From Porodaedalea pini (lineage: Eukaryota > Basidiomycota > Agaricomycetes > Hymenochaetales > Hymenochaetaceae), in NCBI GenBank assembly GCA_002794775.1, contig NBAY01000090.1, positions 62,001 to 126,000 on the forward strand: DNA of 64,000 bases, read 5' to 3'. The notes beneath the pieces were generated by a model, which saw only the letters and a program-made list of their open reading frames with translations, had not been told where the DNA came from and did no database searches. A program made the position numbers and the translations under genes. Each line of letters opens with the position of its first letter. The first letter of the stretch is position 1. Below are positions 4,681 through 26,321 of this stretch, one piece after another.

Positions 4681-4730
4681 GTAGTGCAGAGCAGTGCAAA
4701 TATTACTAACCCACAGCCACCATCAGAAAT

Positions 4731-4860: not shown

Positions 4861-4983
4861 TGTCACTATTAGTCAGCCTTCTCCCTGCCGCTTTTCACAG
4901 TACCCCCCCAAAGTGGCAACTCTGCAGATCACTCAAAGTGGCAGCATACACATAACACTTTGAGCTCAAACAACCCATTTCTC

Positions 4984-5300: not shown

Positions 5301-5611
5301 TCTACAGCCATTTTCATAAGTCCTGTGACATGTGCATGTCATGTGAAGTGAGCCATGTCAGAGCCAAAGCGTCAAAAAATTAGAATGAATGCCTATTTTC
5401 TCTGTGAATTCTGCACAGAACCTGCTCATTAAGTACTCAAAAAAAAGGCATGGTTCTCAGGAGAAGAAATAAGTAAAATAGGGAGCAATAAATTGACTGT
5501 GTAGGTGGGTGGAGATCAAACAAGTGCAGCTGGTCTGTTCTCTCACCCATTTCCACTGAGATTCAAAAATTATGGCTCCCCTAAATCTATCTATAAAATT
5601 CCACTTCAGGC

Positions 5612-5680
5612 TACCCCTAAAAGTAGACCTATTAGGCTAATTCTTACACACAGATAATTAGCCTATTAGGGGTCAGGTTT
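5612..5680 (+). repeat. terminal hairpin of the left arm
   Basis: CCTATTAGGCTAATT at 5628-5642 pairs with AATTAGCCTATTAGG at 5656-5670 (14 of 15 bases) across a 13-base loop, with CCCCTAA and TTAGGGG-like extensions outside. The same structure ends the right arm at about 26243-26311. Its position just inside both outer boundaries makes it a candidate end-recognition structure. No known family assignment. Confidence 0.7.
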
Positions 5681-5689
5681 GGGCGTACC

Positions 5690-5945
5690 CAATTTCCTGG
5701 GTGCGCCCAGTGGGTGTGAGCTGGGTATACCCAATTGTTATTACTGTGGGAAAATTGGGCCTACCCAGCTCCTAGGGCACTCTAAACTGGGCCTCCCCAA
5801 TGTTCCTAGTGGGCATGCCCAATTTTCTGGGTGTGCCCATATGGGCATGCCCAATTTTTTGGGTGTACCCAGGTGGGCATGCCCTGGGTGTACCCAGATA
5901 TGTCACTGTCACTGACTGTCTGGGGGACTTTGGGGCACACCCAGA
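5690..5945 (+). repeat. outer array of palindromic GGG...CCC decamers, left arm
   Basis: Words of the form GGGCATGCCC, GGGTGTACCC or GGGTATACCC, each nearly self-complementary, alternate with CAATTTTCTGGG linkers roughly every 14-20 bases. Open frames across the tract come from the repeat composition and are not treated as genes. A mirrored copy lies at 25978-26233. Confidence 0.85.
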
Positions 5946-6378
5946 AAATCATCCCTCCCTCCCCTTTTATTTTTTTATTTTCTTCTTCAGCTGTATACTT
6001 CTAATGGCTTCATAGGTGCATATATAAATATAGGTTGCATGCTGAATGTGCATCTGCTATTTTAAGTTCTGTATATAGCTTGTAGACATTATAAAGAATG
6101 AAAGTCAATTATATTGACATCTGAGCTTGCTATTGCAGACTACTCATTGTCAAGTGCAAATAGCAAGTTGTTTGATTAAGCTTTGAGCTCAGTTTTGAAT
6201 GTATCTTGACCTCAATCAAGCTCAAATTTTATTTATTTAATTTGGGGCTTCATTCTACTTCAAAGTTCAAATCTCAATTCTATTGCTACAAGTTTCTTCT
6301 CCCTTAGGTCATAACAATCAAGCTAGAACCTCATGGTTGATTCTTGAGCTCTACATTCATTCTCAAATTGAGCAGCTT
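5946..6378. other. AT-rich non-coding part of the left arm
   Basis: This lies between the decamer array and the retrotransposon. It is AT-rich with no coding signal. It is mirrored in the right arm at about 25544-25977. Confidence 0.6.
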
Positions 6379-6383
6379 CTGTA

Positions 6384-6796
6384 TGTTAGAACCTGAACTT
6401 TCACCTTTTCCTTTATTTTCCCTTTTACCATTTCCTTTATTATATTCGTCCTTTTCATTATATTTACCCATCTTACACAATCATTCCCACACTACCTTCA
6501 TTCGTTCCATTCCCACTCGTTATGTAATGTTAGGTAATATAGTCTCACGGTCGTCGCTATATAAGGTCTCAGGAATCGCATGAACTCCTTGTTCTGCTTT
6601 TCCTCTTACCTCCGTGACGACCTAGGTGAGACTCGTCCCCCTTGTATTAGTTTAGACTTGTATTAATCCTCTTACCTCCGTGACGACCTAGCCTGAGTAA
6701 GCGTGTCCCGAGTCTACGCTCGAGTATAGCACGTCCCAGGCGACAGTCAGCCGAGGCCTGCCCAGTCCGAGTCGTCTCCCGGGCTCCCGCCTAACA
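6384..6796 (+). repeat. 5' LTR
   Basis: 413 bp, TG...CA ends. It contains TATATAAG at 6558-6565 and an internal 25-bp direct repeat (6601-6625 and 6667-6691). It is identical to the 3' LTR except for one transition. Confidence 0.97.
6558..6565 (+). promoter_or_regulatory. LTR TATA box
   Basis: TATATAAG lies about 30 bases upstream of GTTCTGCTTTT (6591-6601). This puts the predicted transcript start at about 6588-6592, exactly at the sequence that complements the primer site. Confidence 0.7.
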
Positions 6797-6797
6797 T

Positions 6798-6808
6798 AAA
6801 AGCAGAAC
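6798..6808 (+). promoter_or_regulatory. self-complementary primer binding site (Tf1-type)
   Basis: AAAAGCAGAAC begins two bases after the 5' LTR. It is a perfect complement of GTTCTGCTTTT at 6591-6601, the expected 5' end of the element's own RNA. It has no TGG start expected for pairing with a tRNA 3' CCA end. Tf1/sushi-group chromoviruses prime reverse transcription this way; here it is inferred from sequence alone. Confidence 0.7.
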
Positions 6809-7506
6809 CTCACCCAGGCTCATCCCCAGCGTAAGTCGTCGCTGTCGACTCGCCTTCACTCGGTCTAGAGGAGCGCTCCCCTCGACGGACTTGACGTGTA
6901 AACCCCCTAAACGACAACCCTCAACCCTGCCCGGACGTTTTCGGACGTTCGTGTATTACGTAAATATATCAACCGACATTTCCCGACCCTGGCTCTACGA
7001 ATTAGCCTCTGGTGGAGCACGCACCTAACGTGGACGTGGGTAACAAGACGAGTCCAAACTTCGACGACAATCTCGTTTGTAATCTCACTCGGATCCTACC
7101 GCCTCGTCATCAACTTCGCTGATGAACCCGCTCAACGTTGGCGTAACCCTGGATCAAACGCGCAACCGATCCCTGTCCCTCCGCCAACGTCAAGATAGAT
7201 CTCACCGACGAACAGCAACGGGCCCTTCCTGCTTCAGCCCGTTGGGATCCAGACCGACCAGGCTACGTCGCGACCAATAATAGCGGCGTCGCTCACGACA
7301 TCTGGTGGAGTGAAATCCGGCGCAGCTGGTATTCATCAGACGAACGAGGGAGGAGAGCAAGGTGGCCCCCAGCCACTCCGTCGTCACCTGCACCGTCAAC
7401 GTCTACGGTCAACCTACCACCGACCCCAGGTCCTTACCGCGAAACCAACAGAGACCCCTCACCGCCGACTCCTCCAGAACCTTCGACACCCGCACCCGAA
7501 CCCGCG
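6809..7506 (+). other. retrotransposon 5' leader
   Basis: About 700 bases between the primer site and the gag start. Short overlapping frames exist (7310-7636, 7362-7616), but none has a retroelement domain. It probably holds packaging signals. Confidence 0.6.
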
Positions 7507-8586
7507 ATGTCAGCAGAAGGTTTCAGCCAACAGCAAATGGCGCAGATCGCGGCCATCGTTGCGAATGCCTTCGCCCATCAGGCGAACAACGCCCCAGCAC
7601 CGGTCGCGGCCGCTAACCCCCCGACCCCCAACATAGATGTCGCCCGGCCACGAGAATTCACTGGTGGCGACGATTACCTCGACTTCAGACGTGAAGTCCT
7701 CCTTTTTGTATCCGCAAATCCAAGTCGATACCCTACGTCAGAGAGTAAGATTTATGTAGCTCTCTCCTACCTGAAGGGTGGTAATGCGGCAACGTGGGCG
7801 CAGAACTACGTCGAGGAGTCGACAACGTCGGGGATCGTCACCTTCACCGACAGCTGGGAAAGATTCCAGGAACGACTCGATGCCTCATTCGACGACCCGA
7901 ATCGCAAGGAGAAAGCGCTGAAGGATTTCCGAGATAAGGTTCAGAAGGACCTAACCGCGGACGAGTTCTTCCAGAAGTTCGACGTGATAATTAAGCGCGC
8001 CGAGTTGAAAGACGACAGCGTCATCTGCGATCGCCTCAAGCGGGCGATGAACATTGAGGTGGTCCGTGGAGTGCTAAGGTCGACGCCAGTCCCAACGAAA
8101 TACGAGGATTGGAAGAACAAGGCGATTGAAATAGACCGCGGCGAACAGCAGATTCGCGCTATCCAACGAGGACGCGCCTTTCTTCCCCCGCCTCGCCTAC
8201 CACAACAAGCGCCCCCAGCTCGCCGTCAGGTAGCGGCCCCTCACGTCGACAGACACGATGCAACCGGCGTCACCTTTGGAGGCGCTGGTCAACCGATGGA
8301 CGTCTCGATGAACGAGGCACAACGACGACGTGCGTGCTGGATCTGTGGTGGGCTGGGCCACTTTAAAGACAAGTGCCCACAGGCGAAACCGATCATCCAG
8401 CGCATGCTGGAACTGATGGCGCCAGGCGAACGTTGTGTCCTCGCCGACGAGCTCGGAGCAATGAAGGAGTCGGCCTTCGAGGAAGTCGTAGACACTTGGA
8501 GGTCGACGGTGGAGGACTATGTGGAGGAAGAAGGCGATAACGAAGAGGTCGTCGACTCGCAGGGTTTTGCGAATGGTCAGGCGTAG
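7507..8586 (+). CDS. gag: retrotransposon Gag
   Basis: A 359-residue structural protein expected to assemble the virus-like particle and bind element RNA. Residues about 60-175 resemble the retrotransposon Gag core, with hydrophobic helices around SWERFQERLDASFDDP and the DEFFQKFDVIIKRAEL segment. A zinc knuckle CWICGGLGHFKDKC lies at about 277-290, with CX2CX4HX4C spacing intact. The N-terminus is Gln/Ala/Pro-rich and the C-terminus strongly acidic. The chosen ATG opens the longest frame and precedes a plausible QQQMAQIAAIVANAF helix. The stop (8584-8586) lies inside an overlap with the pol frame, which is open from 8541. Confidence 0.92.
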   Translation: MSAEGFSQQQMAQIAAIVANAFAHQANNAPAPVAAANPPTPNIDVARPREFTGGDDYLDFRREVLLFVSANPSRYPTSESKIYVALSYLKGGNAATWAQNYVEESTTSGIVTFTDSWERFQERLDASFDDPNRKEKALKDFRDKVQKDLTADEFFQKFDVIIKRAELKDDSVICDRLKRAMNIEVVRGVLRSTPVPTKYEDWKNKAIEIDRGEQQIRAIQRGRAFLPPPRLPQQAPPARRQVAAPHVDRHDATGVTFGGAGQPMDVSMNEAQRRRACWICGGLGHFKDKCPQAKPIIQRMLELMAPGERCVLADELGAMKESAFEEVVDTWRSTVEDYVEEEGDNEEVVDSQGFANGQA

Positions 8587-11500
8587 CCATCGGGGCGACT
8601 GACCGAGAAGAACAAGAGACTTCGAATCCGGATCCGCTAAAATATAACCAACCGTTTGTACAATACGTAGATGCGAACAACGTCGATGGTTTTCCCGATT
8701 ACGAAGTCTCCACCGGTGTGAACAAGAATGAAGAGTACGAACAACTGTTCATGAGAGGAACTGGCGGACGCCAGCTGGACCTTCTCCTGACCGTCGAGCA
8801 TGAAATAGCTGGTGAGGCGAGAGAGGTAGATGCGCATGCCCTTGTGGATTCGGGATGCACGGGATCCTGCATCGACGTCAGGTTCGTCGAGAGGTACGGG
8901 TTGGAAACGAAACGCTACATTCGACCCCTCGCGGTGCTGAACGCCGATGGCACGCACAATGAGGCCGGATTGATCGAGGAGTACGTTGACGTCGAACTCA
9001 TGATCGGCCGTCATCGGGAGAAGATCGTCCTCGCAGTAACGTCCCTAGCATCATCGAACATCTTCCTGGGGTACGACTGGCTTCGACGTCACAATCCGGA
9101 GGTCGACTGGAAAACGGGCTCGATCAAATTCACCCGCTGTCCAGAAGAATGTGCGATCGAGAGGGAGCCGGTGGAGGACCTAGGCGAGGTGAAGAAGGTG
9201 GTGGAGCAGATGAGGAGGGTGAGTGAGATGCGAATGGACAAGACGTCCTGGCCCGCATACCTCAACGACTACGCCGACGTTTTCAGCGAAAAAGGTTTCG
9301 AGAAGCTGCCGGAACACCGACCCTGGGATCATGTCATCGACTTGAAGCCCGACTTCAAACCGAGCGACTGTAAGATCTACCCGCTCACGCCGACTGAGCA
9401 GCAGTCACTCAAGGACTTCCTTGATGAAAACCTGAAGTCGGGTCGCATTCGACGGTCGATATCGCCCATGGCGTCGCCCTTCTTCTTCATTAAGAAGGCC
9501 GACAAATCGCTACGCCCGATCCAGGATTACCGTAAGCTCAATGACGGTACGATCAAGAACAAGTATCCCCTCCCTCTCATTGACGAACTCGTCGACAAGG
9601 TCAAGAAAGCGAAATACATCACTAAGCTTGACCTTCGCTGGGGGTACTACAATATCCGGATCCGCGAGGGTGACGAATGGAAAGCAGCGTTTCGCACGAA
9701 CATGGGCCTCTTCGAACCGACGGTCATGTTTTTTGGCCTTTGCAACGCGCCGGCCACGTTCCAGGCCTTTGTCAACCACATCTTTAAGGACCTAATCTAC
9801 GCGAACTTGATCATCGTATACCTCGACGACATCCTGATCCTCTCGGAAACCATTGAGGAGCATATCGACACGTCGAGGCGCGTACTCCAGATCCTCCGAG
9901 AGAATGGCCTGTACCTGAAGCCGGAGAAGTGCGAGTTTGACGCCAAGGTCGTCAAATACCTCGGCCACATCATCGGCAATGGAGAGATCAGGGCTGACCC
10001 GGCAAAGACGGAGGCGATTGCGAACTGGCCAGTCCCACGGAACCTCAAGGAGCTGCAACAGTTCCTCGGCATGGGAAACTGGCTGAGACGGTTTATTAAG
10101 GACTACAGCAAGGTGGTCCGACCGTTGACGTCGTTAACGGGCAAGAAGGACTGGGTATGGGAGACCGAACAGCAGGAAGCATTCAAGGAGCTGAGACGAC
10201 GTCTCTGCTCACCTCCAGTCCTAGCCATCGCCAATGACGAGGGCCCTTTCCGCGTAGAAGCGGACTCGTCGAACTTTGCGCTCGGTGGTGTGTTGTTGCA
10301 GAAGCAGGAAGGGAAGTGGAGGGTGATCGCCTACAGGTCAGAGGCACTTGAACCGGCGGAACGAAACTACGAGATCTACGACAAGGAGATGCTCGCGATC
10401 GTTTCGGCGCTCAAGGAGTGGCGGCAATACCTCCTTGGCGCTCGCCACAAAATTGAAATCTGGTCCGACCACGCCAACCTCACCTATTTCAGGTCAGCGC
10501 AGAAGCTGAGCTATCGTCAAGCTCGCTGGCGAACCGAACTCGAGGAATTCGACTTCCACCTCGAACACAAGTCGGGGAAGACAATGGGCAAGGCCGACTT
10601 GCTGTCACGCAAGGCGGGCTATGATCAGGGCAAGGATGACAATGACGGCGTCGTGTTCATCAAGGAGAAATGGCTGAACCGTGGGGTGGTAAGGACGTCG
10701 CGTGATGAAATGTTGGAACGAGTGGGTGAGGCACAGAGAGCGCAAGACGAGATGGAGAGGCCGACGAATATGGTGAAGGTCGACGGGTTGTGGCGGATGA
10801 AAGGCAAGGTGTACGTGCCGTCGACGATGAAGGAAGCGGTATTGCGGGAGTACCACGACTCGACCCTGGCAGGACATCCTGGATCGTCGAAGACGGTCGA
10901 ACTGGTACGTCGAGACTTCTGGTGGGTGTCAATGTTCTCCGATGTCCGAACATACATCCGAGGATGCAACCGTTGCCAACGGACGAAAGCCTTAAGAACG
11001 TCGAGGTCGAGACCGCTTCATCCTAACGCGATCCCTGAAGGTCCCTGGGAGATCGTCACGGTCGACCTAATCGGAGAACTCCCGGACTCTAAGGGACACA
11101 ATGCAATCTGCGTCTTCGTGGACAGATTCTCGAAACAGATGCATGCCATCCCGACGACGACGAAACTGTCAGCGGAAGGCATGGCTCAGTTATACCGAGA
11201 CCACGTCTTCCGCCTCCATGGCCTACCGAAGAAGATCATCCACGACCGAGGCACACAGTTCGATGCGTCGATGATGAAGGAGCTATACAAACTCCTACAC
11301 ATCGAAGGCAACCCGTCAACGGCATACCACCCACAAACGGACGGTCAGACGGAACACGTCAATCAAGAGCTCGAACAGTACCTCCGGCTCTTCGTCGATC
11401 ATCGGCAATCGGACTGGAAGGACTGGCTCCCCCTCGCAGAGTTCGCCTACAACAACCGTGAACATTCAGCGACAAGGATGTCACCCTTCTACGCAAACAC

Positions 11501-12212
11501 CGGACGTCACCCTATGAGCTTCGACACCGTACGAACTTCCTCTGCCAACATGTCGGCGGAAGAATTCGCCAAGCACATCAAGGAGACTCATCGCGTTGCT
11601 AAGGACAATCTAGTCAAGGCAGCAGAGGACATGAAGCGCTACCATGACCGGACAGCAGGAGCTTCGGTGGAGTACAAGGCTGGAGACAAAGTCTTCCTTG
11701 ACGGGCGAAACATCAGTACGGACTCGCCGACGAAGAAACTCGCAGACAAATGGTACGGCCCCTTTGACATCGTTGACAAGGTAGGAGCGAGCGCGTACAA
11801 GCTCAAACTCCCGAAGCGATGGAAAAAGGTCCACCCTGTCTTCAACGAAGCCCTGTTGAAACCCGCCGTCGAACCGTCCTTTGAAAGCCAGAAGCAACCG
11901 CCGCCGCCGCCGCCAGACATCGTCGACAACGAGGAGGAATACGAACTCGAGGAAGTCTTAGACTCACGTCTGCACCAAGGGAAACTACAGTACCTTGTCA
12001 AGTGGGTCGGCTACAATGAACCTACTTGGCAGCCTGAGACGGACTTCGGCGAGAACGCGAAGGAGGCGATCGCTGAGTTCTACCTCAAACATCCCGGTGC
12101 ACCTCGGAAACTTGACATCCCTCGTCAACGACTCCGTCCGCTCTTCGTCGACACCGAGCCTGACGACCGCGATCATGGTTGGTCGGGACGCCCAACCTTG
12201 AAGGGGGGGTAA
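8541..12212 (+). CDS. pol: retrotransposon Pol (PR-RT-RNase H-IN-chromodomain)
   Basis: The frame is open from 8541. Its first ATG is at 8718, giving 1,164 residues, but synthesis as a Gag-Pol fusion is more likely. Residues counted from that ATG: aspartic protease DSG at about 43-46; reverse transcriptase with YLDD at about 368-371; RNase H with VEADSSNFALGG at about 512-523; integrase zinc finger with HPGSSKT and CNRCQRTK at about 720-758; catalytic Asp in VTVDLIG (about 782), Asp in HDRGTQ (about 843) and Glu in TDGQTE (about 880). A chromodomain with VKWVGYNEPTWQPE at about 1072-1129 probably steers insertion to modified chromatin. No stops or frameshifts: potentially active. The stop codon abuts the 3' LTR. 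Confidence 0.95.
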   Translation, partial: RRGRRLAGFCEWSGVAIGATDREEQETSNPDPLKYNQPFVQYVDANNVDGFPDYEVSTGVNKNEEYEQLFMRGTGGRQLDLLLTVEHEIAGEAREVDAHALVDSGCTGSCIDVRFVERYGLETKRYIRPLAVLNADGTHNEAGLIEEYVDVELMIGRHREKIVLAVTSLASSNIFLGYDWLRRHNPEVDWKTGSIKFTRCPEECAIEREPVEDLGEVKKVVEQMRRVSEMRMDKTSWPAYLNDYADVFSEKGFEKLPEHRPWDHVIDLKPDFKPSDCKIYPLTPTEQQSLKDFLDENLKSGRIRRSISPMASPFFFIKKADKSLRPIQDYRKLNDGTIKNKYPLPLIDELVDKVKKAKYITKLDLRWGYYNIRIREGDEWKAAFRTNMGLFEPTVMFFGLCNAPATFQAFVNHIFKDLIYANLIIVYLDDILILSETIEEHIDTSRRVLQILRENGLYLKPEKCEFDAKVVKYLGHIIGNGEIRADPAKTEAIANWPVPRNLKELQQFLGMGNWLRRFIKDYSKVVRPLTSLTGKKDWVWETEQQEAFKELRRRLCSPPVLAIANDEGPFRVEADSSNFALGGVLLQKQEGKWRVIAYRSEALEPAERNYEIYDKEMLAIVSALKEWRQYLLGARHKIEIWSDHANLTYFRSAQKLSYRQARWRTELEEFDFHLEHKSGKTMGKADLLSRKAGYDQGKDDNDGVVFIKEKWLNRGVVRTSRDEMLERVGEAQRAQDEMERPTNMVKVDGLWRMKGKVYVPSTMKEAVLREYHDSTLAGHPGSSKTVELVRRDFWWVSMFSDVRTYIRGCNRCQRTKALRTSRSRPLHPNAIPEGPWEIVTVDLIGELPDSKGHNAICVFVDRFSKQMHAIPTTTKLSAEGMAQLYRDHVFRLHGLPKKIIHDRGTQFDASMMKELYKLLHIEGNPSTAYHPQTDGQTEHVNQELEQYLRLFVDHRQSDWKDWLPLAEFAYNNREHSATRMSPFYANTGRHPMSFDTVRTSSANMSAEEFAKHIKETHRVAKDNLVKAAEDMKRYHDRTAGASVEYKAGDKVFLDGRNISTDSPTKKLADKWYGPFDIVDKVGASAYKLKLPKRWKKVHPVFNEALLKPAVEPSFESQKQPPPPPPDIVDNEEEYELEEVLDSRLHQGKLQYLVKWVGYNEPTWQPETDFGENAKEAIAEFYLKHPGAPRKLDIPRQRLRPLFVDTEPDDRDHGWSGRPTLKGG
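8562..8604 (+). promoter_or_regulatory. predicted -1 ribosomal frameshift site, gag to pol
   Basis: G GGT TTT (8562-8568) in the gag frame is a canonical X XXY YYZ slippery heptamer. Slipping back one base enters the pol frame, which is free of stops from 8541 through 12209. Six bases downstream, GGTCAG (8575-8580) can pair with CTGACC (8599-8604), a suitable stimulatory stem. The gag stop lies within its loop. Confidence 0.7.
12200..12209 (+). promoter_or_regulatory. polypurine tract
   Basis: GAAGGGGGGG lies three bases before the 3' LTR and overlaps the last pol codons. This is the expected plus-strand priming site. Confidence 0.8.
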
Positions 12213-12625
12213 TGTTAGAACCTGAACTTTCACCTTTTCCTTTATTTTCCCTTTTACCATTTCCTTTATTATATTCGTCCTTTTCATTATATTTACCCAT
12301 CTTACACAATCATTCCCACACTACCTTCATTCGTTCCATTCCCACTCGTTATGTAATGTTAGGTAATATAGTCTCACGGTCGTCGCTATATAAGGTCTCA
12401 GGAATCGCATGAACTCCTTGTTCTGCTTTTCCTCTTACCTCCGTGACGACCTAGGTGAGACTCGTCCCCCTTGTATTAGTTTAGACTTGTATTAATCCTC
12501 TTACCTCCGTGACGACCTAGCCTGAGTAAGCGTGTCCCAAGTCTACGCTCGAGTATAGCACGTCCCAGGCGACAGTCAGCCGAGGCCTGCCCAGTCCGAG
12601 TCGTCTCCCGGGCTCCCGCCTAACA
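12213..12625 (+). repeat. 3' LTR
   Basis: 413 bp, the same as 6384-6796 apart from one G/A difference, followed by the second CTGTA target copy at 12626-12630. Confidence 0.97.
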
Positions 12626-12630
12626 CTGTA

Positions 12631-13310
12631 AGCCCACCAGAGTATTTTTACCACATCTGACTTAACATCAACTGGCTGGACATCATGTCATGACTCTGAG
12701 GTACTGAGTTGCTGATATTCCAAGATGCACAAACTCCAGAAGGCCACCATACAGCCGTACCATGACTGCACTGAGTCTGAGTCTGAAACTTGGTGGCAGC
12801 ATAGCCTCTGGACATTTGAAGCATAGCACATTATATTCTATTTATATTCTTTTCATATTCCCTTCACTCCTTAACCCATCCAAAGCTAATATGAACTCAT
12901 TCAAAGCTCATATGCACTTGCACTGAGTCAAGTGATCCTTTGGCAGACATATATCAAAGATTTATACATTCTGAGAGTAATTCTCAACAGATTCCTTTCA
13001 GACTGGTACTGTATAGTTCATATTATATAATCCTTCCTATTTGAACCCTTTCTGATGCCTTTGTTGCCTCAGTCTCTCTGACAGCAACAAATATTGTTTT
13101 GTCCTGTCTGTCTTGTGGGCTCAAGTGTTGGCACTATCTAGGTGCCTTCTATATAGGATCAATTTATTACTGCAAAGAGAAATAAGATTAGACACTACTG
13201 AGATGAAAAGGAGAGCCTGACTGAGAGAGCCTAGATGTCTTAGGTATATACAAAGATTCAGAGGTGTCTAGTTGGATGTGCCTAAAACATTTGAAAGTGT
13301 CTAGCTAGGT
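12631..13310. other. non-coding part of the left arm
   Basis: AT-rich, with no coding signal. It is mirrored at about 24860-25538 in the right arm with few differences. Confidence 0.6.
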
Positions 13311-13320
13311 ATTCCCAGAT

Positions 13321-13640
13321 ACATTGAGTATGCCCAGTTGGGTACTCCCAATTATTTGGGCACACCCAGTTGGGCACTCCCAGCCATCTGGGCATGCCCA
13401 GTTGGGCACTCCCAGCCATCTGGGCACGCCCAGTTGGGCACTCCCAGCCATCTGGGCACACCCAGTTGGGCACTCCCAATTATTTGGGCACGCCCAGTTG
13501 GGCACTCCCAACCATCTGGGCACTCCCAACCATCTGGGCACTCCCAACCATCTGGGTACACCCAGTTGGGCACTCCCAACCATCTGGGTACACCCAGTTG
13601 GGCACTCCCAACTATTTGGGAATACCCAGTTGGGTGTGCC
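13321..13640 (+). repeat. 32-bp minisatellite, left arm
   Basis: Units of about 32 bases (CCCAGTTGGGCACTCCCA, then a CATCTGGGCA-type half) repeat about nine times, including two shortened 18-base units near 13500-13545. Each unit contains TGGG...CCCA inverted words, so the array can form many small hairpins. The right-arm array (about 24565-24850) differs in unit number and order, making this the most divergent part of the arms. Long frames here are repeat artefacts. Confidence 0.88.
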
Positions 13641-13938
13641 TAGCTACTTATTATCTTTTTTAATTCCTGCCTAAGATTTTTTTTTCTTTTTTTGAGAAGT
13701 AAAAACTGTTATGTCATGAAAATCAAATAGGTCTAGAATAGAAGTCTTGAATATTCTATGGAGAATTTCTCAATCATTTTATTCTAGGCTCTGAATCTTA
13801 GCTGCCTTGCTCTGGAGACCAATCAACACACTGCAAGCCACTGCAGGTCAGATGACAATGTTGTTTGATGTGAGAGCAAAAGAAAGCAATGTTTGCTGTG
13901 CACTGAGCACTGCATGTTGGTGAGCTACAATGATCATA
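13641..13938. other. non-coding spacer, left arm
   Basis: Nothing recognisable. It is mirrored at about 24267-24560. Confidence 0.5.
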
Positions 13939-15013: not shown

Positions 15014-15228
15014 GGTGATGGTGATGTCGATGTGACGCTCTGGGATAGATGCACGGCCGCATCATCTGGCAGCGTCGCAGCACATCTAAGTGCCCTGTTT
15101 GCCATACCTGCCTTCGTCCTCACGTGACCAAACTCCGGGCTTGCGCCTGCATCTGACAAGGGTGGACTCGGGAAGTGCATCGCGTTGTGCACTGCAGAAA
15201 CCGGAGACGATCCAAATGCGCTCGCACC

Positions 15229-16407: not shown

Positions 16408-16689
16408 ATTCGCTGCGGCGGGCTCTCTGGCTCTGGGCGTTGACGAGCGTCTGTGAGCGTCAAAGGACAGGTGGAGTTGATGCGTGAGAAGAGGTCGCTA
16501 CGAATGTTTTGATTGGAACGAGATCCTTCTCGGACACAACGGTTGCGTCGCGTTCGCCGAAGTGCGCAGTGAGAAAGGCAGATGAGAAAACGGCTGACGT
16601 CGATGTTGAGGCGTGTGGAACATTGGCGGGGGCAGAAGGAAGAGGTGAGGAATGCGTCCCAGGTGAACAGGGCGAGGGAAGTTGAACCG

Positions 16690-16975
16690 CTCGACGGTTT
16701 CGGTGAATGTCGCCAGTCCCTCCCTGCCTGACAATGACGAGAGAGAGGACAGCGACGTTGCGACCGATGATGCAGCCACGGGCCGGCTTGCACTTTCTCA
16801 CCAGTGCGGCAGAGATGGTAGCAAGAGTGACCAGCAGAAAGGAGAAGGCGAGCAGTTAGGAATGAGTACACCCTGCTTCATCGGGAAGTCCTGCTCGTCG
16901 TTTCCGCCAGAGACGCGGAAGACGTGGCCCTTGAACTCATCACCGAGCAAGTCGCTGGGGACACCTGGGACATCT
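16690..16975 (-). pseudogene. ribosomal protein eS6 (RPS6) fragment, left-arm copy
   Basis: The reverse strand reads [34 protein letters not shown], then in another frame [19 protein letters not shown], then in a third [20 protein letters not shown] and VIVRQG. This is the conserved central part of eS6, a component of the small ribosomal subunit. Two frameshifts and the missing N- and C-terminal parts make it a fragment. It abuts the Hsp90 fragment head to head at about 16975-16994, so two unrelated genes are fused here. Confidence 0.75.
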
Positions 16976-16993
16976 TGCCGTGGAAAATGCGGT

Positions 16994-18092
16994 AACGACC
17001 ACCTCGCTATGAAGCACTTCTCGGTAGAAGGTCAGCTCAAATTCAAGGCTATTCTCTACATTCCGAAGCGGTGAGTCTCCTTGCTGGCCTTGCTATGAAC
17101 CTGTTTCTGACGTCTCTTTTAGCGCACCGTTCGACCTCTTCGAGTCCAAGAAGAAGCGTAACAACATTAAGCTCTACGTCCGCCCCGTCTTCATTATGGA
17201 CGACTGCGAGGATCTCATCCCCGAGTACCTTAACTTCGTCAAGGGTATCGTCGACTCTGAGGATCTCCCGCTCAACATCTCGCGTGAGACGCTCCAGCAG
17301 AACAAGATTCTCAAGGTCATCCGCAAGAACATCGTGAAGAAGTGCCTCGACCTCATCCAGGAGATCTCGGAGGACAAGGACAACTTCAAGAAGTTCTACG
17401 AGGCGTTCGGCAAGAACCTCAAGCTTGGTATCCACGAGGATGCGCAGAACCGCAGCAAGCTCGCCGAGTTCCTCCGCTTCTACTCGACGAAGTCGACTGA
17501 GGAGCAGGTCTCGCTGAAAAAGGGTACGTGTTCAAGCGGCGGCCCTGTCCCGTTATTTGGTTGCTGACATCTTACCGCAGACTACATCACGCGGATGCCT
17601 GAGATTCAGAAGTCCATCTACTACCTCACTGGCGAGTCGCTCAATGCCGTCAAGGACTCTCCCTTCCTTGAGGCTCTCAAGAAGCAGGGCTTCGAGGTAC
17701 TCCTGCTTGTTGACCCGATCGACGAGTACGCCGTCACTCAGCTCAAGGAGTTCGACGGTCACAAGCTCGTGTGCGTGTCGAAGGAGGGTCTGGAGCTCGA
17801 GGAGACCGAAGAGGAGAAGAAGGAGCGCGAGAGTGAGGCCTCGCAGTTCGAGGAGCTCTGCAAGGTCGTCAAGGATGCGCTCGGCGACAAGGTCGAGAAG
17901 GTCGTCATCTCGAACCGCGTCACCGACTCAACATGTGTGCTCGTCACCGGCCAGTTCGGCTGGTCCGCAAATATGGAGCGCATCATGAAGGCGCAGGCGC
18001 TTCGCGACTCGTCAATGTCATCGTACATGGCGTCGAAGAAGACGCTTAAGCTTAACCCGCACAACGCGATCATCAAGGTCCTTCGATGTTGA
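16994..18092 (+). pseudogene. Hsp90 middle and C-terminal fragment, left-arm copy
   Basis: Three exons (16994-17070, 17123-17523, 17581-18092) join in frame through clean GT-AG introns. They encode the Hsp90 middle domain from [20 protein letters not shown] through [20 protein letters not shown], then [16 protein letters not shown], then part of the C-terminal domain to [14 protein letters not shown]. The N-terminal ATPase domain, most of the dimerisation domain and the terminal MEEVD-type motif are missing, so chaperone activity is not expected. The open frame is otherwise undamaged, suggesting recent capture. Retained introns point to DNA-level rather than RNA-level duplication. Confidence 0.88.
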
Positions 18093-18940
18093 TCGTCTTT
18101 TGCTGGCCCATCGCCAGGTCAGCGATGTCGACACTTCATGGCCGGTGGTGTCTTGAGGAGCTCGTCGTGTTCTGTCCCTTCAGGCAAGCAAAAAAAAAAT
18201 GATGAAAAGTAATTATTAGTATATTCAAATAGTTTTTATGATTTTTTTTTTTTGCTTACCTTGAGTGTGTGGCCGGTGGGACAGCCGTGCTCGTCGTCGA
18301 TGGTGAAGACGAAACGACACGAACAACGACGACGCGTTGGTTGTGTTGCCTAATTTGGCCGATCGCCGCGTCTCAAACAAGCAATCAAAGCATTCCGATT
18401 CTTTCGGAAATCTCGAAAGTCTCAGCTGTTGGCCTCAAACAAATTCTACGGACGCGTTTAAAAATACAAAAAAATATGGAATAGTTTTATTATGTATGTA
18501 TCTCTATCATAGCCAATAATTACGCGTCCAACGCGTTTTTCAATGGAGTCATAAATACAACAGTAATCTTGACATGCAGCACCAGGCCTCCAGAAGCATA
18601 CACAAAAGTACAATATACCCTGAAAGGCCTGACACCTATTCTATCATGAAGTAAGTGATACATTGTGTATGTATGCAAGGTTTCAAGCCAATCAGACATG
18701 AACTGACTTCATAATAGAGAAGGAGGTGGTTTCATGAGATCTTCTGAATCTGAGTGTTTTGTATATCCTGTTCCCACTTTCTACTTTGATGGCACATAAA
18801 ATATTAAGCATATCCAGAATGGATATGTCTATGTTTATGTAAATTTACAAGTTTCCAGCCTCAGTGGTTGGAGCTGGGTGAATTGCAAAACATCGAAAAG
18901 CATGGTTTTTAGAAGTTCAGAGAAAGCATATATTCATGTT
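18093..18940. other. inner non-coding part of the left arm
   Basis: No gene. It holds a small hairpin (18183-18260), several ACGCGT words near 18450-18540, and AT-rich sequence up to the inner boundary. Confidence 0.6.
18183..18260 (+). repeat. MITE-like hairpin with A/T-run stems
   Basis: GGCAAGC plus an A-run and TGATGAAAA pairs imperfectly with TTTTATGATT plus a T-run and GCTTACC, across an AT-rich loop of about 25 bases. The mirrored copy is at about 19939-20018. It may be a tiny foldback element. No clear target duplication. Confidence 0.45.
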
Positions 18941-19259
18941 GTTGCTTTATTCCAAACCTCAGGAAGCTCTATAAAATAAATATTAATACTTTTAATGACT
19001 ATAATGAATGTAATCAGGTGCTAGATCTCAGAGTTAGAGGAAAGTTCTGAAGGGGGAGAGGAAATACATGCAAAACTGCTCTGTGTTTCTTGGATTTCTG
19101 TCAGGTTTCACAAAACATGAACTGTATCACTTCTCATTTCACTCCCAATTCCGAACTTTTCCCTCACCCACAAAACTAAGGACTGGATATCTTTCTTGGA
19201 GCATACTTAAATACAAATAACTAATTTTGTTGAGCTTCTCATACTGTGAACCAACTAAA
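18941..19259. other. unique spacer at the centre of the giant palindrome
   Basis: 319 bases with no inverse partner, AT-rich, no ORF or recognised motif. Both boundaries are sharp: pairing is exact up to 18940 and from 19260. Confidence 0.85.
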
Positions 19260-19938
19260 AACATGAATATATGCTTTCTCTGAACTTCTAAAAACCATGC
19301 TTTTCGATGTTTTGCAATTCACCCAGCTCCAACCACTGAGGCTGGAAACTTGTAAATTTACATAAACATAGACATATCCATTCTGGATATGCTTAATATT
19401 TTATGTGCCATCAAAGTAGAAAGTGGGAACAGGATATACAAAACACTCAGATTCAGAAGATCTCATGAAACCACCTCCTTCTCTATTATGAAGTCAGTTC
19501 ATGTCTGATTGGCTTGAAACCTTGCATACATACACAATGTATCACTTACTTCATGATAGAATAGGTGTCAGGCCTTTCAGGGTATATTGTACTTTTGTGT
19601 ATGCTTCTGGAGGCCTGGTGCTGCATGTCAAGATTACTGTTGTATTTATGACTCCATTGAAAAACGCGTTGGACGCGTAATTATTGGCTATGATAGAGAT
19701 ACATACATAATAAAACTATTCCATTTTTTTTGTATTTTTAAACGCGTCCGTAGAATTTGTTTGAGGCCAACAGCTGAGACTTTCGAGATTTCCGAAAGAA
19801 TCGGAATGCTTTGATTGCTTGTTTGAGACGCGGCGATCGGCCAAATTAGGCAACACAACCAACGCGTCGTCGTTGTTCGTGTCGTTTCGTCTTCACCATC
19901 GACGACGAGCACGGCTGTCCCACCGGCCACACACTCAA

Positions 19939-20018
19939 GGTAAGCAAAAAAAAAATTAATCATAAAAACTATTTGAATATACTAATAATTACTTTTCATC
20001 ATTTTTTTTTTGCTTGCC
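19939..20018 (-). repeat. MITE-like hairpin, right-arm copy
   Basis: Mirror copy of 18183-18260, with slightly different A/T run lengths. Confidence 0.4.
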
Positions 20019-20108
20019 TGAAGGGACAGAACACGACGAGCTCCTCAAGACACCACCGGCCATGAAGTGTCGACATCGCTGACCTGGCGATGGGCCAGCA
20101 AAAGACGA

Positions 20109-21206
20109 TCAACATCGAAGGACCTTGATGATCGCGTTGTGCGGGTTAAGCTTAAGCGTCTTCTTCGACGCCATGTACGATGACATTGACGAGTCGCGAA
20201 GCGCCTGCGCCTTCATGATGCGCTCCATATTTGCGGACCAGCCGAACTGGCCGGTGACGAGCACACATGTTGAGTCGGTGACGCGGTTCGAGATGACGAC
20301 CTTCTCGACCTTGTCGCCGAGCGCATCCTTGACGACCTTGCAGAGCTCCTCGAACTGCGAGGCCTCACTCTCGCGCTCCTTCTTCTCCTCTTCGGTCTCC
20401 TCGAGCTCCAGACCCTCCTTCGACACGCACACGAGCTTGTGACCGTCGAACTCCTTGAGCTGAGTGACGGCGTACTCGTCGATCGGGTCAACAAGCAGGA
20501 GTACCTCGAAGCCCTGCTTCTTGAGAGCCTCAAGGAAGGGAGAGTCCTTGACGGCATTGAGCGACTCGCCAGTGAGGTAGTAGATGGACTTCTGAATCTC
20601 AGGCATCCGCGTGATGTAGTCTGCGGTAAGATGTCAGCAACCAAATAACGGGACAGGGCCGCCGCTTGAACACGTACCCTTTTTCAGCGAGACCTGCTCC
20701 TCAGTCGACTTCGTCGAGTAGAAGCGGAGGAACTCGGCGAGCTTGCTGCGGTTCTGCGCATCCTCGTGGATACCAAGCTTGAGGTTCTTGCCGAACGCCT
20801 CGTAGAACTTCTTGATGTTGTCCTTGTCCTCCGAGATCTCCTGGATGAGGTCGAGGCACTTCTTCACGATGTTCTTGCGGATGACCTTGAGAATCTTGTT
20901 CTGCTGGAGCGTCTCACGCGAGATGTTGAGCGGGAGATCCTCAGAGTCGACGATACCCTTGACGAAGTTAAGGTACTCGGGGATGAGATCCTCGCAGTCG
21001 TCCATAATGAAGACGGGGCGGACGTAGAGCTTAATGTTGTTACGCTTCTTCTTGGACTCGAAGAGGTCGAACGGTGCGCTAAAAGAGACGTCAGAAACAG
21101 GTTCATAGCAAGGCCAGCAAGGAGACTCACCGCTTCGGAATGTAGAGAATAGCCTTGAATTTGAGCTGACCTTCTACCGAGAAGTGCTTCATAGCGAGGT
21201 GGTCGT
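20109..21206 (-). pseudogene. Hsp90 fragment, right-arm copy
   Basis: Mirror copy of the left-arm Hsp90 fragment with the same three-exon structure, the same truncations at both ends and the same KVLRC ending. One visible amino-acid difference is Ile for Phe in DKDN(F/I)KKFYEAF. Intact splice signals and frame in both arms show that little decay has happened since duplication. Non-functional as a chaperone for lack of the ATPase domain. Confidence 0.88.
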
Positions 21207-21224
21207 TACCGCATTTTCCACGGC

Positions 21225-21510
21225 AAGATGTCCCAGGTGTCCCCAGCGACTTGCTCGGTGATGAGTTCAAGGGCCACGTCTTCCGCGTCTCTGGCGGAAA
21301 CGACGAGCAGGACTTCCCGATGAAGCAGGGTGTACTCATTCCTAACTGCTCGCCTTCTCCTTTCTGCTGGTCACTCTTGCTACCATCTCTGCCGCACTGG
21401 TGAGAAAGTGCAAGCCGGCCCGTGGCTGCATCATCGGTCGCAACGTCGCTGTCCTCTCTCTCGTCATTGTCAGGCAGGGAGGGACTGGCGACATTCACCG
21501 AAACCGTCGA
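21225..21510 (+). pseudogene. ribosomal protein eS6 fragment, right-arm copy
   Basis: Same segment and same two frameshifts as the left-arm copy: [20 protein letters not shown], then [12 protein letters not shown], then [18 protein letters not shown] in three frames. It lies head to head with the Hsp90 fragment. Confidence 0.75.
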
Positions 21511-21793
21511 GCGGTTCAACTTCCCTCGCCCTGTTCACCTGGGACGCATTCCTCACCTCTTCCTTCTGCCCCCGCCAATGTTCCACACGCCTCAACATCG
21601 ACGTCAGCCGTTTTCTCATCTGCCTTTCTCACTGCGCACTTCGGCGAACGCGACGCAACCGTTGTGTCCGAGAAGGATCTCGTTCCAATCAAAACATTCG
21701 TAGCGACCTCTTCTCACGCATCAACTCCACCTGTCCTTTGACGCTCACAGACGCTCGTCAACGCCCAGAGCCAGAGAGCCCGCCGCAGCGAAT

Positions 21794-22971
21794 ATGGCCA
21801 CCGTCCACGCCCCGCGCCATCCCCACCCCCATCCGCATCAGCATTCGATATCATCATCGAGTGCCAGCTCGAACCACTCGCCCTTCCGGCGCGTGCACCG
21901 CGCGACGTACGCCCCGCCTCCACCTGCGAAATCGTCTTCTGCGTCCGCCGCTGCCGCAGCATCTACCTCGAGTTCTGTAAGCGTCCCCCCTCTTTCCCCC
22001 CGATCTCTGATACTTGAGTGATGATCGGCTGTTGATCGGTGTCTTGTTCTCTATCGCGTTTTTTTCCTCCGACCGCGCCGAAAACGTTCGACAAAAAAAC
22101 AGTCATCGGCAGTCCCGCGCGCACACCACTCGCATCACCCCGCGCCGGCAGCACCTCCACCGGCAGTCGCCACTTACTACGGGCACGAAGACACCAGCAA
22201 GCTCTGTGCGCGCTTCGTCAGCCATACCTTCAACTGCCCCGAGATCCTTCCTCCGTCGTCCTCCACCTCTTCCACATCGTCCTCGACCGCAGTCGTCTTG
22301 CGTGCCCCCCGCTACCGCAATGGCAGGATCAAGAGGGGCACCAGTGATACCGAATACGCTTGCGCACTTCGTCGCATACGCGCTGCATCGCACTCGCCTC
22401 ACCGTTCACGCACGAGACGTAGCGTCCTGCAGTCGGCGCTCTGCTACATCGGGGCGGTGCGGGGGAAGGTGACGGGTCGAGCCGGAGTTGGATAAGAGGG
22501 AAGGCGAGGTGTCTCTCTCGTCAAAGGCGAATACCTCTTCGGACACGTCCAACCCCTGCGGTCTTCTGACAGAGCTGACGTCAATGGACCCCTCCAACAG
22601 ATCGCGCGTGCCGACAGTCTACCAAATGGACGCTTCGCTTCCATCCACTCAGCAGATGCAGACTCAAAGGCAGTCTAACGACAAGCGTCGTAAGATCCTT
22701 GCAAAACTGCTCACACCGCTGTCACCTCTGTCATTGCCGCTTCTTCGCCCGCGGCGCACTTTCGTCGCCGCACTCACTCTCGTATCGAAATCATTACAGG
22801 ATCGATGCTATTCGAATCGAACATGGGCGAATCTCTCCGGTCCCATCACATGTGGTTGGACGCCGCGAACGCTCACTGGGCGATGCCCTAGGACCGTGTC
22901 TCTGGGTCGGCAAGAGTACTACGCCGCCGCAGGAAGAGCAGTCACGCGGCATGCAACACATGAAAAGCTAG
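21794..22971 (+). pseudogene. Pcl/Pho80-type cyclin fragment, right-arm copy
   Basis: Mirror of the left-arm cyclin remnant: ATG at 21794, the apparent intron, then cyclin-box pieces in shifting frames (HFVAYALHRTRL, LQSALCYIGAVRGKV, TLVSKSLQDRCYSNRTWANL, LGDALGPCLWVGK). A few substitutions distinguish it from the left copy (for example LGPCLW versus LGPRLW). Confidence 0.7.
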
Positions 22972-23186
22972 GGTGCGAGCGCATTTGGATCGTCTCCGGT
23001 TTCTGCAGTGCACAACGCGATGCACTTCCCGAGTCCACCCTTGTCAGATGCAGGCGCAAGCCCGGAGTTTGGTTACGTGAGGACGAAGGCAGGTATGGCA
23101 AACAGGGCACTTAGATGTGCTGCGACGCTGCCAGATGATGCGGCCGTGCATCTATCCCAGAGCGTCACATCGACATCACCATCACC

Positions 23187-24266
23187 ATGCAGAAGAACCA
23201 GGTCCAGACTGAGGAAGACGCGCTACTTTCGCTCTAGCTGCGTCTCATTGAGCCGGCTTTCAAGTGGGAAGTGTTGCCTAACCTTATTGCGCACGACCCT
23301 TACTTCAGCGGCTGGAACCAGACGATCTTTGGCAATGCCTCTGATTGGAAGGCCATGGACCCTGTCCCGTATTTCATGGATGGCGCCAGTGGTATCCTTG
23401 ATGCCTGCCGTCAAGTCAAAGAGTGCATAAGGCCATTGCGTATGTCTACCGCATGACGAACGATTCATTGTGAGTTGACTGTACCTGGCTAGAGCTCCAG
23501 GTTTGGCTCATTATATAATTTGCATCCTTGTACATGCTGATATGTTATACTTGCAGAATGCTGCTGGCAATGGCTCGACCTCATGGGATCCCGCTGTTGA
23601 CAGGTGGAGTCCTGCTCATTTTCTTGACACTGCTGAAATGTCCGCCGCTTTCGGTATTGCTTACAACTAGCTTTACGACATGTGGGCTGATGACAAGAAG
23701 GAGATGATCTGGTCCACTTTGAAACAGTATGATCTGTCCCTTGGCATTGCTGCTCTGGTGCAGGGCATGAATGGCTGGTGGTCAGATGCTGATATTAAGG
23801 GTAACTGGAACTGTGTTTGCAATGGCGGTCTCACTTTGGTATCTCTCACCATCCTTGGTGATGACATGACTGGAAACACGGTGCAGCTTCTTCCTCTTAC
23901 TGTTGTGAATGCGAAGGAGAACTGCTTTGCTGTCTCAGATGATGGTTTGTGGGCAGAGACAGCAAACTAAAAAACTATTGGTACTTCGAAATGACTGGCT
24001 AGTCTGAGATGACCTCTTCGCTTGTGTCGGCAACTGGTTCGGAGTCTGGCATGCTCAGTAACAACCCAAACTTGAACCTCAGTGGTTTTTTGCACATGTA
24101 CATTCAGGGTGTGACTTTGCTCTTCAACTACAGTGACCATGGCCCCAACAAGTACACTGCTACCATGGACTCACTCATTTTCCTGGCAGATCAGTTCAAC
24201 TCCCCAAGCTATGCTCTGTACCAACATGATCAGTATGATGCTGCTGACCCTTGGAGCATGTTCTAG
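23187..24266 (+). pseudogene. heparinase II/III-like fragment, right-arm copy
   Basis: Same content as the left copy and slightly less decayed. After DQFNSPSYAL the frame stays open through YQHDQYDAADPWSMF, where the left arm has lost two bases. The stop after FGIAYN and the missing C-terminal half are shared. Exon-like breaks fall near 23470-23560. Confidence 0.75.
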
Positions 24267-24564
24267 TATGGTCATTGTAGCTCACCAACATGCAGTGCTC
24301 AGTGCACAGCAAACATTGCTTTCTTTTGCTCTCACATCAAACAACATTGTCATCTGACCTGCAGTGGCTTGCAGTGTGTTGATTGGTCTCCAGAGCAAGG
24401 CAGCTAAGATTCAGAGCCTAGAATAAAATGATTGAGAAATTCTCCATAGAATATTCAAGACTTCTATTCTAGACCTATTTGATTTTCATGACATAACAGT
24501 TTTTACTTCTCAAAAAAAGAAAAAAAAATCTTAGGCAGGAATTAAAAAAGATAATAAGTAGCTA

Positions 24565-24850
24565 GGCACACCCAACTGGGTATTCCCAAATAGTTGGGAG
24601 TGCCCAACTGGGCATGCCCAGATGGTTAGGAGTGCCCAACTGGGCGTGCCCAAATAATTGGGAGTGCCTAACTGGGCATGCCCAGATGGCTGGGAGTGCC
24701 CAACTGGGTATGCCCAGATGGCTGGGAGTGCCCAACTGGGTGTGCCCAGATGGCTGGGAGTGCCCAACTGGGCATGCCCAGATGGCTGGGAGTGCCCAAC
24801 TGGGCATGCCCAAATAATTGGGAGTACCCAACTGGGCATACCCAATGTAT
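24565..24850 (-). repeat. 32-bp minisatellite, right arm
   Basis: About eight units of the same repeat as 13321-13640 in opposite orientation. It lacks the two shortened units seen in the left arm. Confidence 0.85.
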
Positions 24851-24859
24851 CTGGGAATA

Positions 24860-25538
24860 CCTAGCTAGACACTTTCAAATGTTTTAGGCACATCCAACTA
24901 GACACCTCTGAATCTTTGTATATACCTAAGACATCTAGGCTCTCTCAGTCAGGCTCTCCTTTTCATCTCAGTAGTGTCTAATCTTATTTCTCTTTGCAGT
25001 AATAAATTGATCCTATATAGAAGGCACCTAGATAGTGCCAACACTTGAGCCCACAAGACAGACAGGACAAAACAATATTTGTTGCTGTCAGAGAGACTGA
25101 GGCAACAAAGGCATCAGAAAGGGTTCAAATAGGAAGGATTATATAATATGAACTATACAGTACCAGTCTGAAAGGAATCTGTTGAGAATTACTCTCAGAA
25201 TGCATAAATCTTTGATATATGTCTGCCAAAGGATCACTTGACTCAGTGCAAGTGCATATGAGCTTTGAATGAGTTCATATTAGCTTTGGATGGGTTAAGG
25301 AGTGAAGGGAATATGAAAAGAATATAAATAGAATATAATGTGCTATGCTTCAAATGTCCAGAGGCTATGCTGCCACCAAGTTTCAGACTCAGACTCAGTG
25401 CAGTCATGGTACGGCTGTATGGTGGCCTTCTGGAGTTTGTGCATCTTGGAATATCAGCAACTCAGTACCTCAGAGTCATGACATGATGTCCAGCCAGTTG
25501 ATGTTAAGTCAGATGTAGTAAAAATACTCTGGTGGGCT
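24860..25538. other. non-coding part of the right arm
   Basis: Mirror of 12631-13310. Nothing coding. Confidence 0.55.
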
Positions 25539-25543
25539 TACAG
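25539..25543 (-). other. empty retrotransposon insertion site
   Basis: TACAG (reverse complement CTGTA) occurs once. Its flanks match the left-arm sequences on either side of the element. This is the pre-insertion sequence of the target. Confidence 0.95.
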
Positions 25544-25977
25544 AAGCTGCTCAATTTGAGAATGAATGTAGAGCTCAAGAATCAACCATGAGGTTCTAGC
25601 TTGATTGTTATGACCTAAGGGAGAAGAAACTTGTAGCAATAGAATTGAGATTTGAACTTTGAAGTAGAATGAAGCCCCAAATTAAATAAATAAAATTTGA
25701 GCTTGATTGAGGTCAAGATACATTCAAAACTGAGCTCAAAGCTTAATCAAACAACTTGCTATTTGCACTTAACAATGAGTAGTCTGCAATAGCAAGCTCA
25801 GATGTCAATATAATTGACTTTCATTCTTTATAATGTCTACAAGCTATATACAGAACTTAAAATAGCAGATGCACATTCAGCATGCAACCTATATTTATAT
25901 ATGCATCTATGAAGCCATTAGAAGTATACAGCTGAAGAAGAAAATAAAAAAATAAAAGGGGAGGGAGGGATGATTTT
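25544..25977. other. AT-rich non-coding part of the right arm
   Basis: Mirror of 5946-6378. No coding signal. Confidence 0.55.
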
Positions 25978-26233
25978 CTGGGTGTGCCCAAAAGTCCCCC
26001 AGACAGTCAGTGACAGTGACATATCTGGGTACACCCAGGGCATGCCCACCTGGGTACACCCAAAAAATTGGGCATGCCCATATGGGCACACCCAGAAAAT
26101 TGGGCATGCCCACCTAGGAACATTGGGGAGGCCCAGTTGGGAGTGCCCTAGAAACTGGGTAGGCCCAATTTTCCCACAGTAATTACAATTGGGTATACCC
26201 AGCTCACACCCACTGGGTGCACCCAGGAAATTG
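25978..26233 (-). repeat. outer array of palindromic decamers, right arm
   Basis: Mirror of 5690-5945. GGGCATGCCC-, GGGTACACCC- and GGGTATACCC-type words at short intervals. Confidence 0.85.
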
Positions 26234-26242
26234 GGTACACCC

Positions 26243-26311
26243 AAACCTGACCCCTAATAGGCTAATTATCTGTGTGTAAGAATTAGCCTAATAGGTCTAC
26301 TCTTAGGGGTA
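26243..26311 (-). repeat. terminal hairpin of the right arm
   Basis: Mirror of 5612-5680, with stem halves on either side of ATCTGTGTGTAAG. The arm ends ten bases further out at 26321. Confidence 0.7.
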
Positions 26312-26321
26312 GCCTGAAGTG

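What the first reader, a model, noticed from the sequence alone, without database searches (positions are those of the whole stretch)
5602..26321. 20.7-kb giant inverted repeat with 7.1-kb arms and a 319-bp unique spacer
Arms pair base for base from 5602/26321 to 18940/19260, at about 99% identity as judged by eye. Each end carries the same hairpin and decamer array. Palindromes this long are unstable, and I know no described fungal element with this layout. It could be a very long-TIR non-autonomous element, a foldback duplication made by template switching, or an artefactual join of two haplotypes of a dikaryon (which would also explain the divergence and the insertion polymorphism).
Basis: partly seen in the sequence, partly recalled or inferred. 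Interest (0 to 1): 0.88.

Follow-up and report, generated by a model that had tools for sequence, protein, structure and literature searches.

The report
Giant palindromic transposon family
The 20.7-kb palindrome is one of about fifty copies of a mobile DNA element that is almost entirely a mirror image of itself, carries pieces of the host's Hsp90 and ribosomal-protein genes in both halves, and keeps its two halves alike while the copies drift apart.

Summary
The palindrome is real, but the element is about 14.5 kb: a 6.24-kb Gypsy retrotransposon sits in its left arm. Arms are 7,092 and 7,062 bp, 99.4% identical, around a 319-bp spacer. It belongs to a dispersed family: 50 inverted pairs of its RPS6 fragment, with 39 of 40 listed spacer hits centred in such a pair. 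Of 16 two-ended copies examined, 12 have a 7- or 8-bp target duplication beside CAC...GTG (11 exact). A 29.6-kb relative with nearly the same termini, about 3.8-kb TIRs and its own duplication encodes a KDZ-superfamily transposase. Most likely this is a non-autonomous KDZ transposon that became palindromic once and moves as a unit. Arms evolve in concert: in 9 of 11 copies they differ by 0-5 of 6,260-6,390 sites, while inner arms of different copies differ by up to 12%. Captured Hsp90 DNA is in both arms or neither in the 18 copies compared. The window copy has no true duplication: its flanks come from two different repeats, so recombination or the assembler joined its edges.

The parts
5602..26321 (.). 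Whole palindromic element (CAC...GTG), interrupted by a nested LTR retrotransposon
   Evidence: self-comparison and genome copies
5602..6383 (+). Left arm, outer piece (terminus)
   Evidence: its first 28 bases match 42 places genome-wide with at most 3 mismatches
12631..18940 (+). Left arm, remainder
18941..19259 (.). Unpaired central spacer; same centre in 10 of 11 fully read copies (C59 has a centre deletion)
19260..26321 (-). Right arm
5609..5678 (+). Terminal imperfect hairpin; same sequence with few changes at the right end
   Evidence: ssDNA fold -14.9 kcal/mol, z -3.65; right end read
5680..5896 (.). Subterminal TGGGNNNNCCCA decamers, possible transposase-binding sites (inferred); mirrored at 25979-26243
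   Evidence: 54 in window, 0.66 expected
13303..13643 (.). Tandem array carrying the same decamer; mirrored at about 24531-24860
16997..18082 (+). Captured host Hsp90 gene fragment, intron included; mirrored at about 20119-21204 (-)
   Evidence: 95.9% to the gene at G000:C3:769757-771424
16858..16962 (-). Captured RPS6 (Ribosomal_S6e) fragment, split by the Hsp90 insert; mirrored at 21239-21343 (+)
6384..12625 (+). Nested Gypsy/chromodomain LTR retrotransposon; LTRs 6384-6796 and 12213-12625; TSD CTGTA

Best explanation
This is a non-autonomous DNA transposon whose two ends are alike because almost the whole element is an inverted duplication. A KDZ-superfamily transposase, supplied in trans by relatives such as G000:C2:501266-530822, most likely recognises the hairpin and decamer-rich termini, excises the element and inserts it with a 7- or 8-bp duplication. 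The palindrome formed once, before the present subfamilies split, because they carry the same 319-bp centre. Since then it has moved as one unit. The two arms are kept alike by copying one arm from the other, either by gene conversion within the palindrome or at transposition. So a host gene piece captured in one arm ends up in both, and the arms lengthen symmetrically. Shown: family, termini, TSDs, shared centre, arm homogeneity, symmetric captures, transposase in a relative. Inferred: that this transposase moves these copies, and how arms are homogenised.
For: Family and TSDs: 16 two-ended copies examined (15 with the palindromic layout plus C2; for C116, C125, C78 and C42 only ends and listed hits were seen): seven exact 7-bp (C59, C37, C51, C147, C125, C78, C42), one 7-bp with one mismatch (C49), four exact 8-bp (C24, C65, C116, C2), four none (C112, C105, C86, window). 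Census: 107 RPS6 fragment hits give 50 inverted pairs, no same-orientation neighbours within 13 kb, 7 unpaired; 39 of 40 listed spacer hits are centred in a pair. Transposase: KDZ Pfam match 8.1e-54 and CxC1 3.5e-6 inside C2, which has nearly the same termini (1 mismatch in 28), about 3.8-kb TIRs and TSD TTGCTATC. Concerted arms. Symmetric captures: Hsp90 in both arms of 11 of 11 full A copies and in neither arm of 6 of 6 B copies; C144, cut off by its locus, has part in both.
Against: The window copy encodes no transposase that a Pfam scan of its main frames recognised, and C2 resembles the palindromes only at the terminal ~310 bp, a ~550-bp stretch in the other orientation, and the arrays. 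The C2 KDZ gene could be a nested insertion of another element; that was not excluded. Published Laccaria Kyakuja elements have no TIRs (PMC12730594, passages). Four of 16 copies lack a TSD, the window copy among them. TSDs are 7 bp in some copies and 8 in others. In young clusters the inner arms are identical between copies too (C37 and C65; C24b, C54 and C65b), so there they say nothing about concert, and the window's left arm is nearer to C59_R (0.416%) than to its own partner (0.486%).
Confidence: 0.8

Rival explanations
1. Arms are alike because each new copy is rebuilt from one half: an excised or broken half-element folds back on itself and is copied, so divergence is reset to zero at every move, with no later conversion between arms.
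For: Of the 65 arm differences in the 11 copies, 46 are private to one arm, as expected for mutations after a reset; C24, C147 and C59 are near zero and have exact TSDs.
Against: The other 19 differences have both alleles elsewhere in the family (window 14 of 31, C105 3 of 5, C51 1 of 1, C112 1 of 18). The same 319-bp non-palindromic spacer and centre persist across subfamilies that differ by up to 12%; repeated fold-back would be expected to move the centre. The one spacerless case (C162) reaches a contig start and is probably an assembly fold-back.
Confidence: 0.35
2. Assembly or haplotype artefact: the palindrome is a join of two haplotypes or of inverted read copies.
For: The window copy's two flanks come from different repeats; C105 shares a flank with C65; C162 folds back at a contig start; several ends have no partner, three of them (C88, C81, C74) within 2 kb of a contig end.
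Against: Matching 7-8-bp TSDs at 12 of 16 two-ended copies; same spacer at 40 listed places; arms that differ in array length and, in the window, in a one-arm retrotransposon. No reads could be examined.
Confidence: 0.04
3. The window copy alone is a recombinant of two elements, not an assembly error: an exchange inside two copies joined the flank of one insertion to the flank of another.
For: Different flanking repeats; 14 of its 31 arm differences carry alleles that each occur in other copies; C112 also lacks a TSD and has 15 versus 2 private changes in its arms.
Against: A mis-join in assembly would leave the same signs; no reads could be examined. By eye, no reciprocal partner is among the ends printed.
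Confidence: 0.5
4. It belongs to another superfamily that makes 7-bp TSDs, such as P/Galileo or hAT7.
For: 7-bp TSD and long TIRs recall Galileo (from memory); hAT7 makes 7-bp TSDs (PMC12730594, passages).
Against: A P-type RNase-H family gave no match, though its controls did not ring either, so that is inconclusive. A KDZ gene lies within matching termini. hAT was not searched.
Confidence: 0.1

Closest known systems
Kyakuja (KDZ superfamily) transposons of Agaricomycetes
   Same: 7-bp TSD, 5'-CA..TG-3' termini, KDZ transposase in a relative (PMC12730594, passages)
   Different: The two published Laccaria families have no TIRs; here TIRs are about 3.8 kb in the coding relative and 7.1 kb in the palindromes; no Tet_JBP match was found in C2, though that search's controls did not ring
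KDZ elements of Marasmius oreades (PMC8290104, passages)
   Same: That paper says it characterised TIR motifs of KDZ and Plavaka elements, so TIRs as such are not new for the group
   Different: The motifs and their lengths are in a supplementary figure that I did not see; no palindrome is mentioned in its main text (term search)
Zisupton / Dileera (KDZ)
   Same: KDZ transposase; 8-bp TSD as in four copies here
   Different: More copies here have 7 bp than 8; transposase phylogeny could not be done
Pack-MULEs and MULEs with long TIRs in plants
   Same: Captured gene fragments; identical TIRs taken as a sign of youth (PMC3310237, passages)
   Different: Other superfamily; the gene fragments here sit inside the arms and so exist twice
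Galileo / Foldback elements of Drosophila (recalled, not read)
   Same: Very long TIRs with internal tandem repeats; ectopic recombination between copies
   Different: P superfamily; TIRs of about 1 kb as recalled; different transposase
Y-chromosome palindromes with arm-to-arm gene conversion (recalled)
   Same: Arms far more alike than expected from their age
   Different: Those are not mobile and not dispersed

Membership tests
KDZ DNA transposon superfamily | KDZ transposase encoded by the element or by a relative with the same ends | tested here: met
   Met by relative C2, unless its KDZ gene is a nested insertion; none recognised in the window copy
KDZ DNA transposon superfamily | 7- or 8-bp TSD | tested here: met
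   12 of 16 two-ended copies; not in the window copy
Kyakuja | CA..TG termini and 7-bp TSD | tested here: met
   CAC..GTG; 8 copies with 7 bp (one of them with a mismatch), but 4 with 8 bp
Kyakuja | no TIRs (two Laccaria families) | tested here: not met
   7.1-kb TIRs here, about 3.8 kb in C2
Kyakuja | transposase groups with Kyakuja in a tree | not testable with these tools
   Protein database was unavailable
Kyakuja (TET-bearing) | TET/JBP dioxygenase gene | tested here: inconclusive
   No Tet_JBP match within C2, one sub-threshold match elsewhere at C6; the search's controls rang in 0 genomes
P / Galileo superfamily | P-type transposase | tested here: inconclusive
   No match, but controls did not ring
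hAT7 | hAT transposase | not tested
   No hAT family was searched
Pack-type (gene-capturing) element | host gene fragments with an identifiable source gene | tested here: met
   Hsp90 and RPS6

The most novel reading that the evidence does not exclude
A fully palindromic transposon lineage that renews itself by copying one arm onto the other, so that its arms act as a growing, self-correcting double archive of captured host genes; if transcribed through the centre it would make a 7-kb hairpin RNA matching itself and the host Hsp90 and RPS6 genes, a possible built-in trigger or decoy of RNA silencing. No transcript or small-RNA data were available.
Probability: 0.12. Interest if true: 0.85.

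Novelty: new variant of a known kind. Interest (0 to 1): 0.62.

Why it matters
Palindromes of this size are generally held to be unstable (recalled knowledge), yet here one has spread to about fifty places, and 42 of 50 inverted pairs have an RPS6-to-RPS6 spacing of 2.2 or 4.4 kb to the nearest 100 bases. It offers a natural series of palindromes for measuring arm-to-arm conversion, shows how terminal repeats can grow to kilobases by capturing host DNA in both arms, and adds elements with giant inverted repeats to the KDZ superfamily, as far as the few passages I could read show. It also warns that such repeats can mis-join or rearrange fungal contigs.

Tried and rejected
C162 first looked like an independently formed spacerless palindrome, which would have supported fold-back rebuilding; its palindrome runs to the first base of the contig at 100%, so it was set aside as a likely contig-end artefact, though it is still one of the 50 pairs counted. 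Early BLAST output suggested different spacer lengths in some copies; direct alignment showed the same 319-bp centre in 10 of 11 and a centre deletion in C59. I first took the window flanks AAAATTC/AAGATTT as a decayed TSD; reading uninterrupted copies of both flanking repeats (one of the left, two of the right) showed they are two different sites. A fall of arm differences towards the centre in the window copy is weak (Fisher p 0.012-0.021; C112 0.19-0.34) and is not relied on. Source of the spacer: no match beyond chance to the RPS6 or Hsp90 source loci or to C2. Literature: two paper searches answered; the others failed, so no claim is made that such an element is absent from print.
Full report
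Observation. The window lies at G000:C90:62001-126000 of a 53-Mb, 201-contig assembly. Self-comparison shows a palindrome from 5602 to 26321 centred on a 319-bp spacer. Its left arm is split by a 6.24-kb Gypsy LTR retrotransposon with chromodomain, 1 difference in 413 LTR bases and a CTGTA duplication. Without that insert the arms are 7,092 and 7,062 bp and match at 99.44% of aligned bases, with 174 gap columns that I did not map one by one.

A family, not an accident. The terminal 28 bases occur at 42 places with at most three mismatches, against none for the reversed control pattern. Ten further two-ended copies were read in full; each is a palindrome of 14.1 to 15.2 kb. Flanks show duplications next to CAC...GTG. 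With small end fetches, C2 and C42, 16 two-ended copies were examined: 11 exact duplications (seven of 7 bp, four of 8 bp), one with a mismatch, four without. The listed RPS6 matches (113 rows; 107 used after dropping the source gene and five overlapping rows) form 50 inverted pairs with no same-orientation neighbours and 7 unpaired, and 39 of the 40 spacer hits shown (52 candidates) lie in the middle of such a pair; the exception, C168:893, has one unpaired RPS6 hit beside it. Counts are lower bounds because the search scores only its best candidates; one pair, C162, is probably an assembly fold-back.

What moves it. A KDZ-family search finds 77 matches in the genome. One lies in C2:501266-530822, a 29.6-kb element with nearly the same termini, an exact 8-bp duplication, KDZ and CxC1 matches, five further open frames tested without a Pfam match below E 0.1, and its own copy of the Gypsy element. 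Its TIRs match over about 3.85 kb: 5 of the 40 mismatches outside the array lie before position 3846 and 35 after it, where the match ends. The shared ends and the duplication sizes make KDZ the best assignment. Whether it is nearer Kyakuja, Dileera or Zisupton could not be tested. PMC12730594 (passages read) gives 7-bp duplications, CA..TG ends and no TIRs for two Laccaria Kyakuja families, and 8 bp for Zisupton. PMC8290104 (passages read) says TIR motifs of KDZ elements in Marasmius oreades are shown in a supplement, which I did not see. So TIRs may be known for KDZ; giant ones are the departure here, as far as I could check.

Cargo. The arms hold a 1,086-bp piece of the host Hsp90 gene at C3, intron included, at 95.9% identity. 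A weaker Hsp90 match at C13 is the only other one outside the family in that listing. It is set into an older captured piece of RPS6, whose only full-length match is at C81 (78-90% identity by piece). Subfamily B lacks the Hsp90 piece; at the junction a few bases of B are replaced in A, with short shared bases at both edges (by eye). This looks like DNA-level capture during repair (inference). Hsp90 is in both arms of all 11 full A copies and in neither arm of all 6 B copies; C144, cut off by its locus, has part of it in both. A 108-bp segment is likewise in both arms of 13 copies and in neither arm of 4, with C144 out of range.

Concerted arms. Outside the array, arms of the same copy differ at 0, 0, 0, 1, 1, 3, 3, 3 and 5 sites in nine copies, 18 in C112 and 31 in the window copy, of 6,259 to 6,391; the median distance to arms of other copies is 1.5-2.0%, the nearest 0.06-0.85%. 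For C59 the three differences are at the edge of its centre deletion. For the window copy the nearest other arm, C59_R, is closer (0.416%) than its own partner (0.486%), against the general rule. In an inner-arm comparison of 36 arms from 18 copies, 16 copies have no substitution between arms over about 770 sites, while copies differ by up to 12.1%; within young clusters, different copies are identical too. Of 65 arm differences, 46 are private to one arm and 19 have both alleles elsewhere. Since the subfamilies share the same centre, the palindrome is older than they are, and its arms must have been equalised repeatedly. Gene conversion in place and a reset at transposition both fit; I give conversion the edge because the spacer and centre persist.

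The window copy. Its left flank is a repeat that runs on uninterrupted at C133 as AAAATTC|TTTCCTG, and its right flank is another repeat that at C70 and C31 is preceded by ...GACATT. So there is no duplication at this copy. Its edges were joined by exchange between two copies or by the assembler; C112, C86 and C105 also lack duplications.

Verdict. A real, dispersed, gene-capturing, fully palindromic transposon family with arm homogenisation, most likely KDZ-driven: a new variant of a known kind.

Noticed in passing
window 62942-64000 (and 5187-5304): A second, smaller palindrome: about 1.05 kb self-inverted at 94.5%, running to the window end; its end sequence also lies at 5187-5304, just left of the element.
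   Followed up: no
window 61701-62126: A stretch 87.8% identical, in inverted orientation, to the LTRs of the nested Gypsy element, apparently a solo LTR.
   Followed up: no
L036:3973-5448 (-): 491-aa open frame in the KDZ-bearing relative with what looks by eye like three repeats of an unknown domain; no Pfam match; protein search failed.
   Followed up: partly
L035:6183 to L036:2425 (C2 copy): The KDZ-bearing relative carries its own copy of the same Gypsy element with identical 414-bp LTRs.
   Followed up: no
G000:C105, around 1149-15691 and 95152: The right flank of the first element and the left flank of a second one share CCGGGTG, and its left flank equals the right flank of C65: mis-join or rearrangement.
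   Followed up: partly
G000:C162:1-10256: Spacerless palindrome reaching the contig start, probably an assembly fold-back.
   Followed up: yes
C59 centre (L009 end, L010 start): Deletion of part of the spacer and part of one arm at the palindrome centre, as expected from centre breakage.
   Followed up: partly
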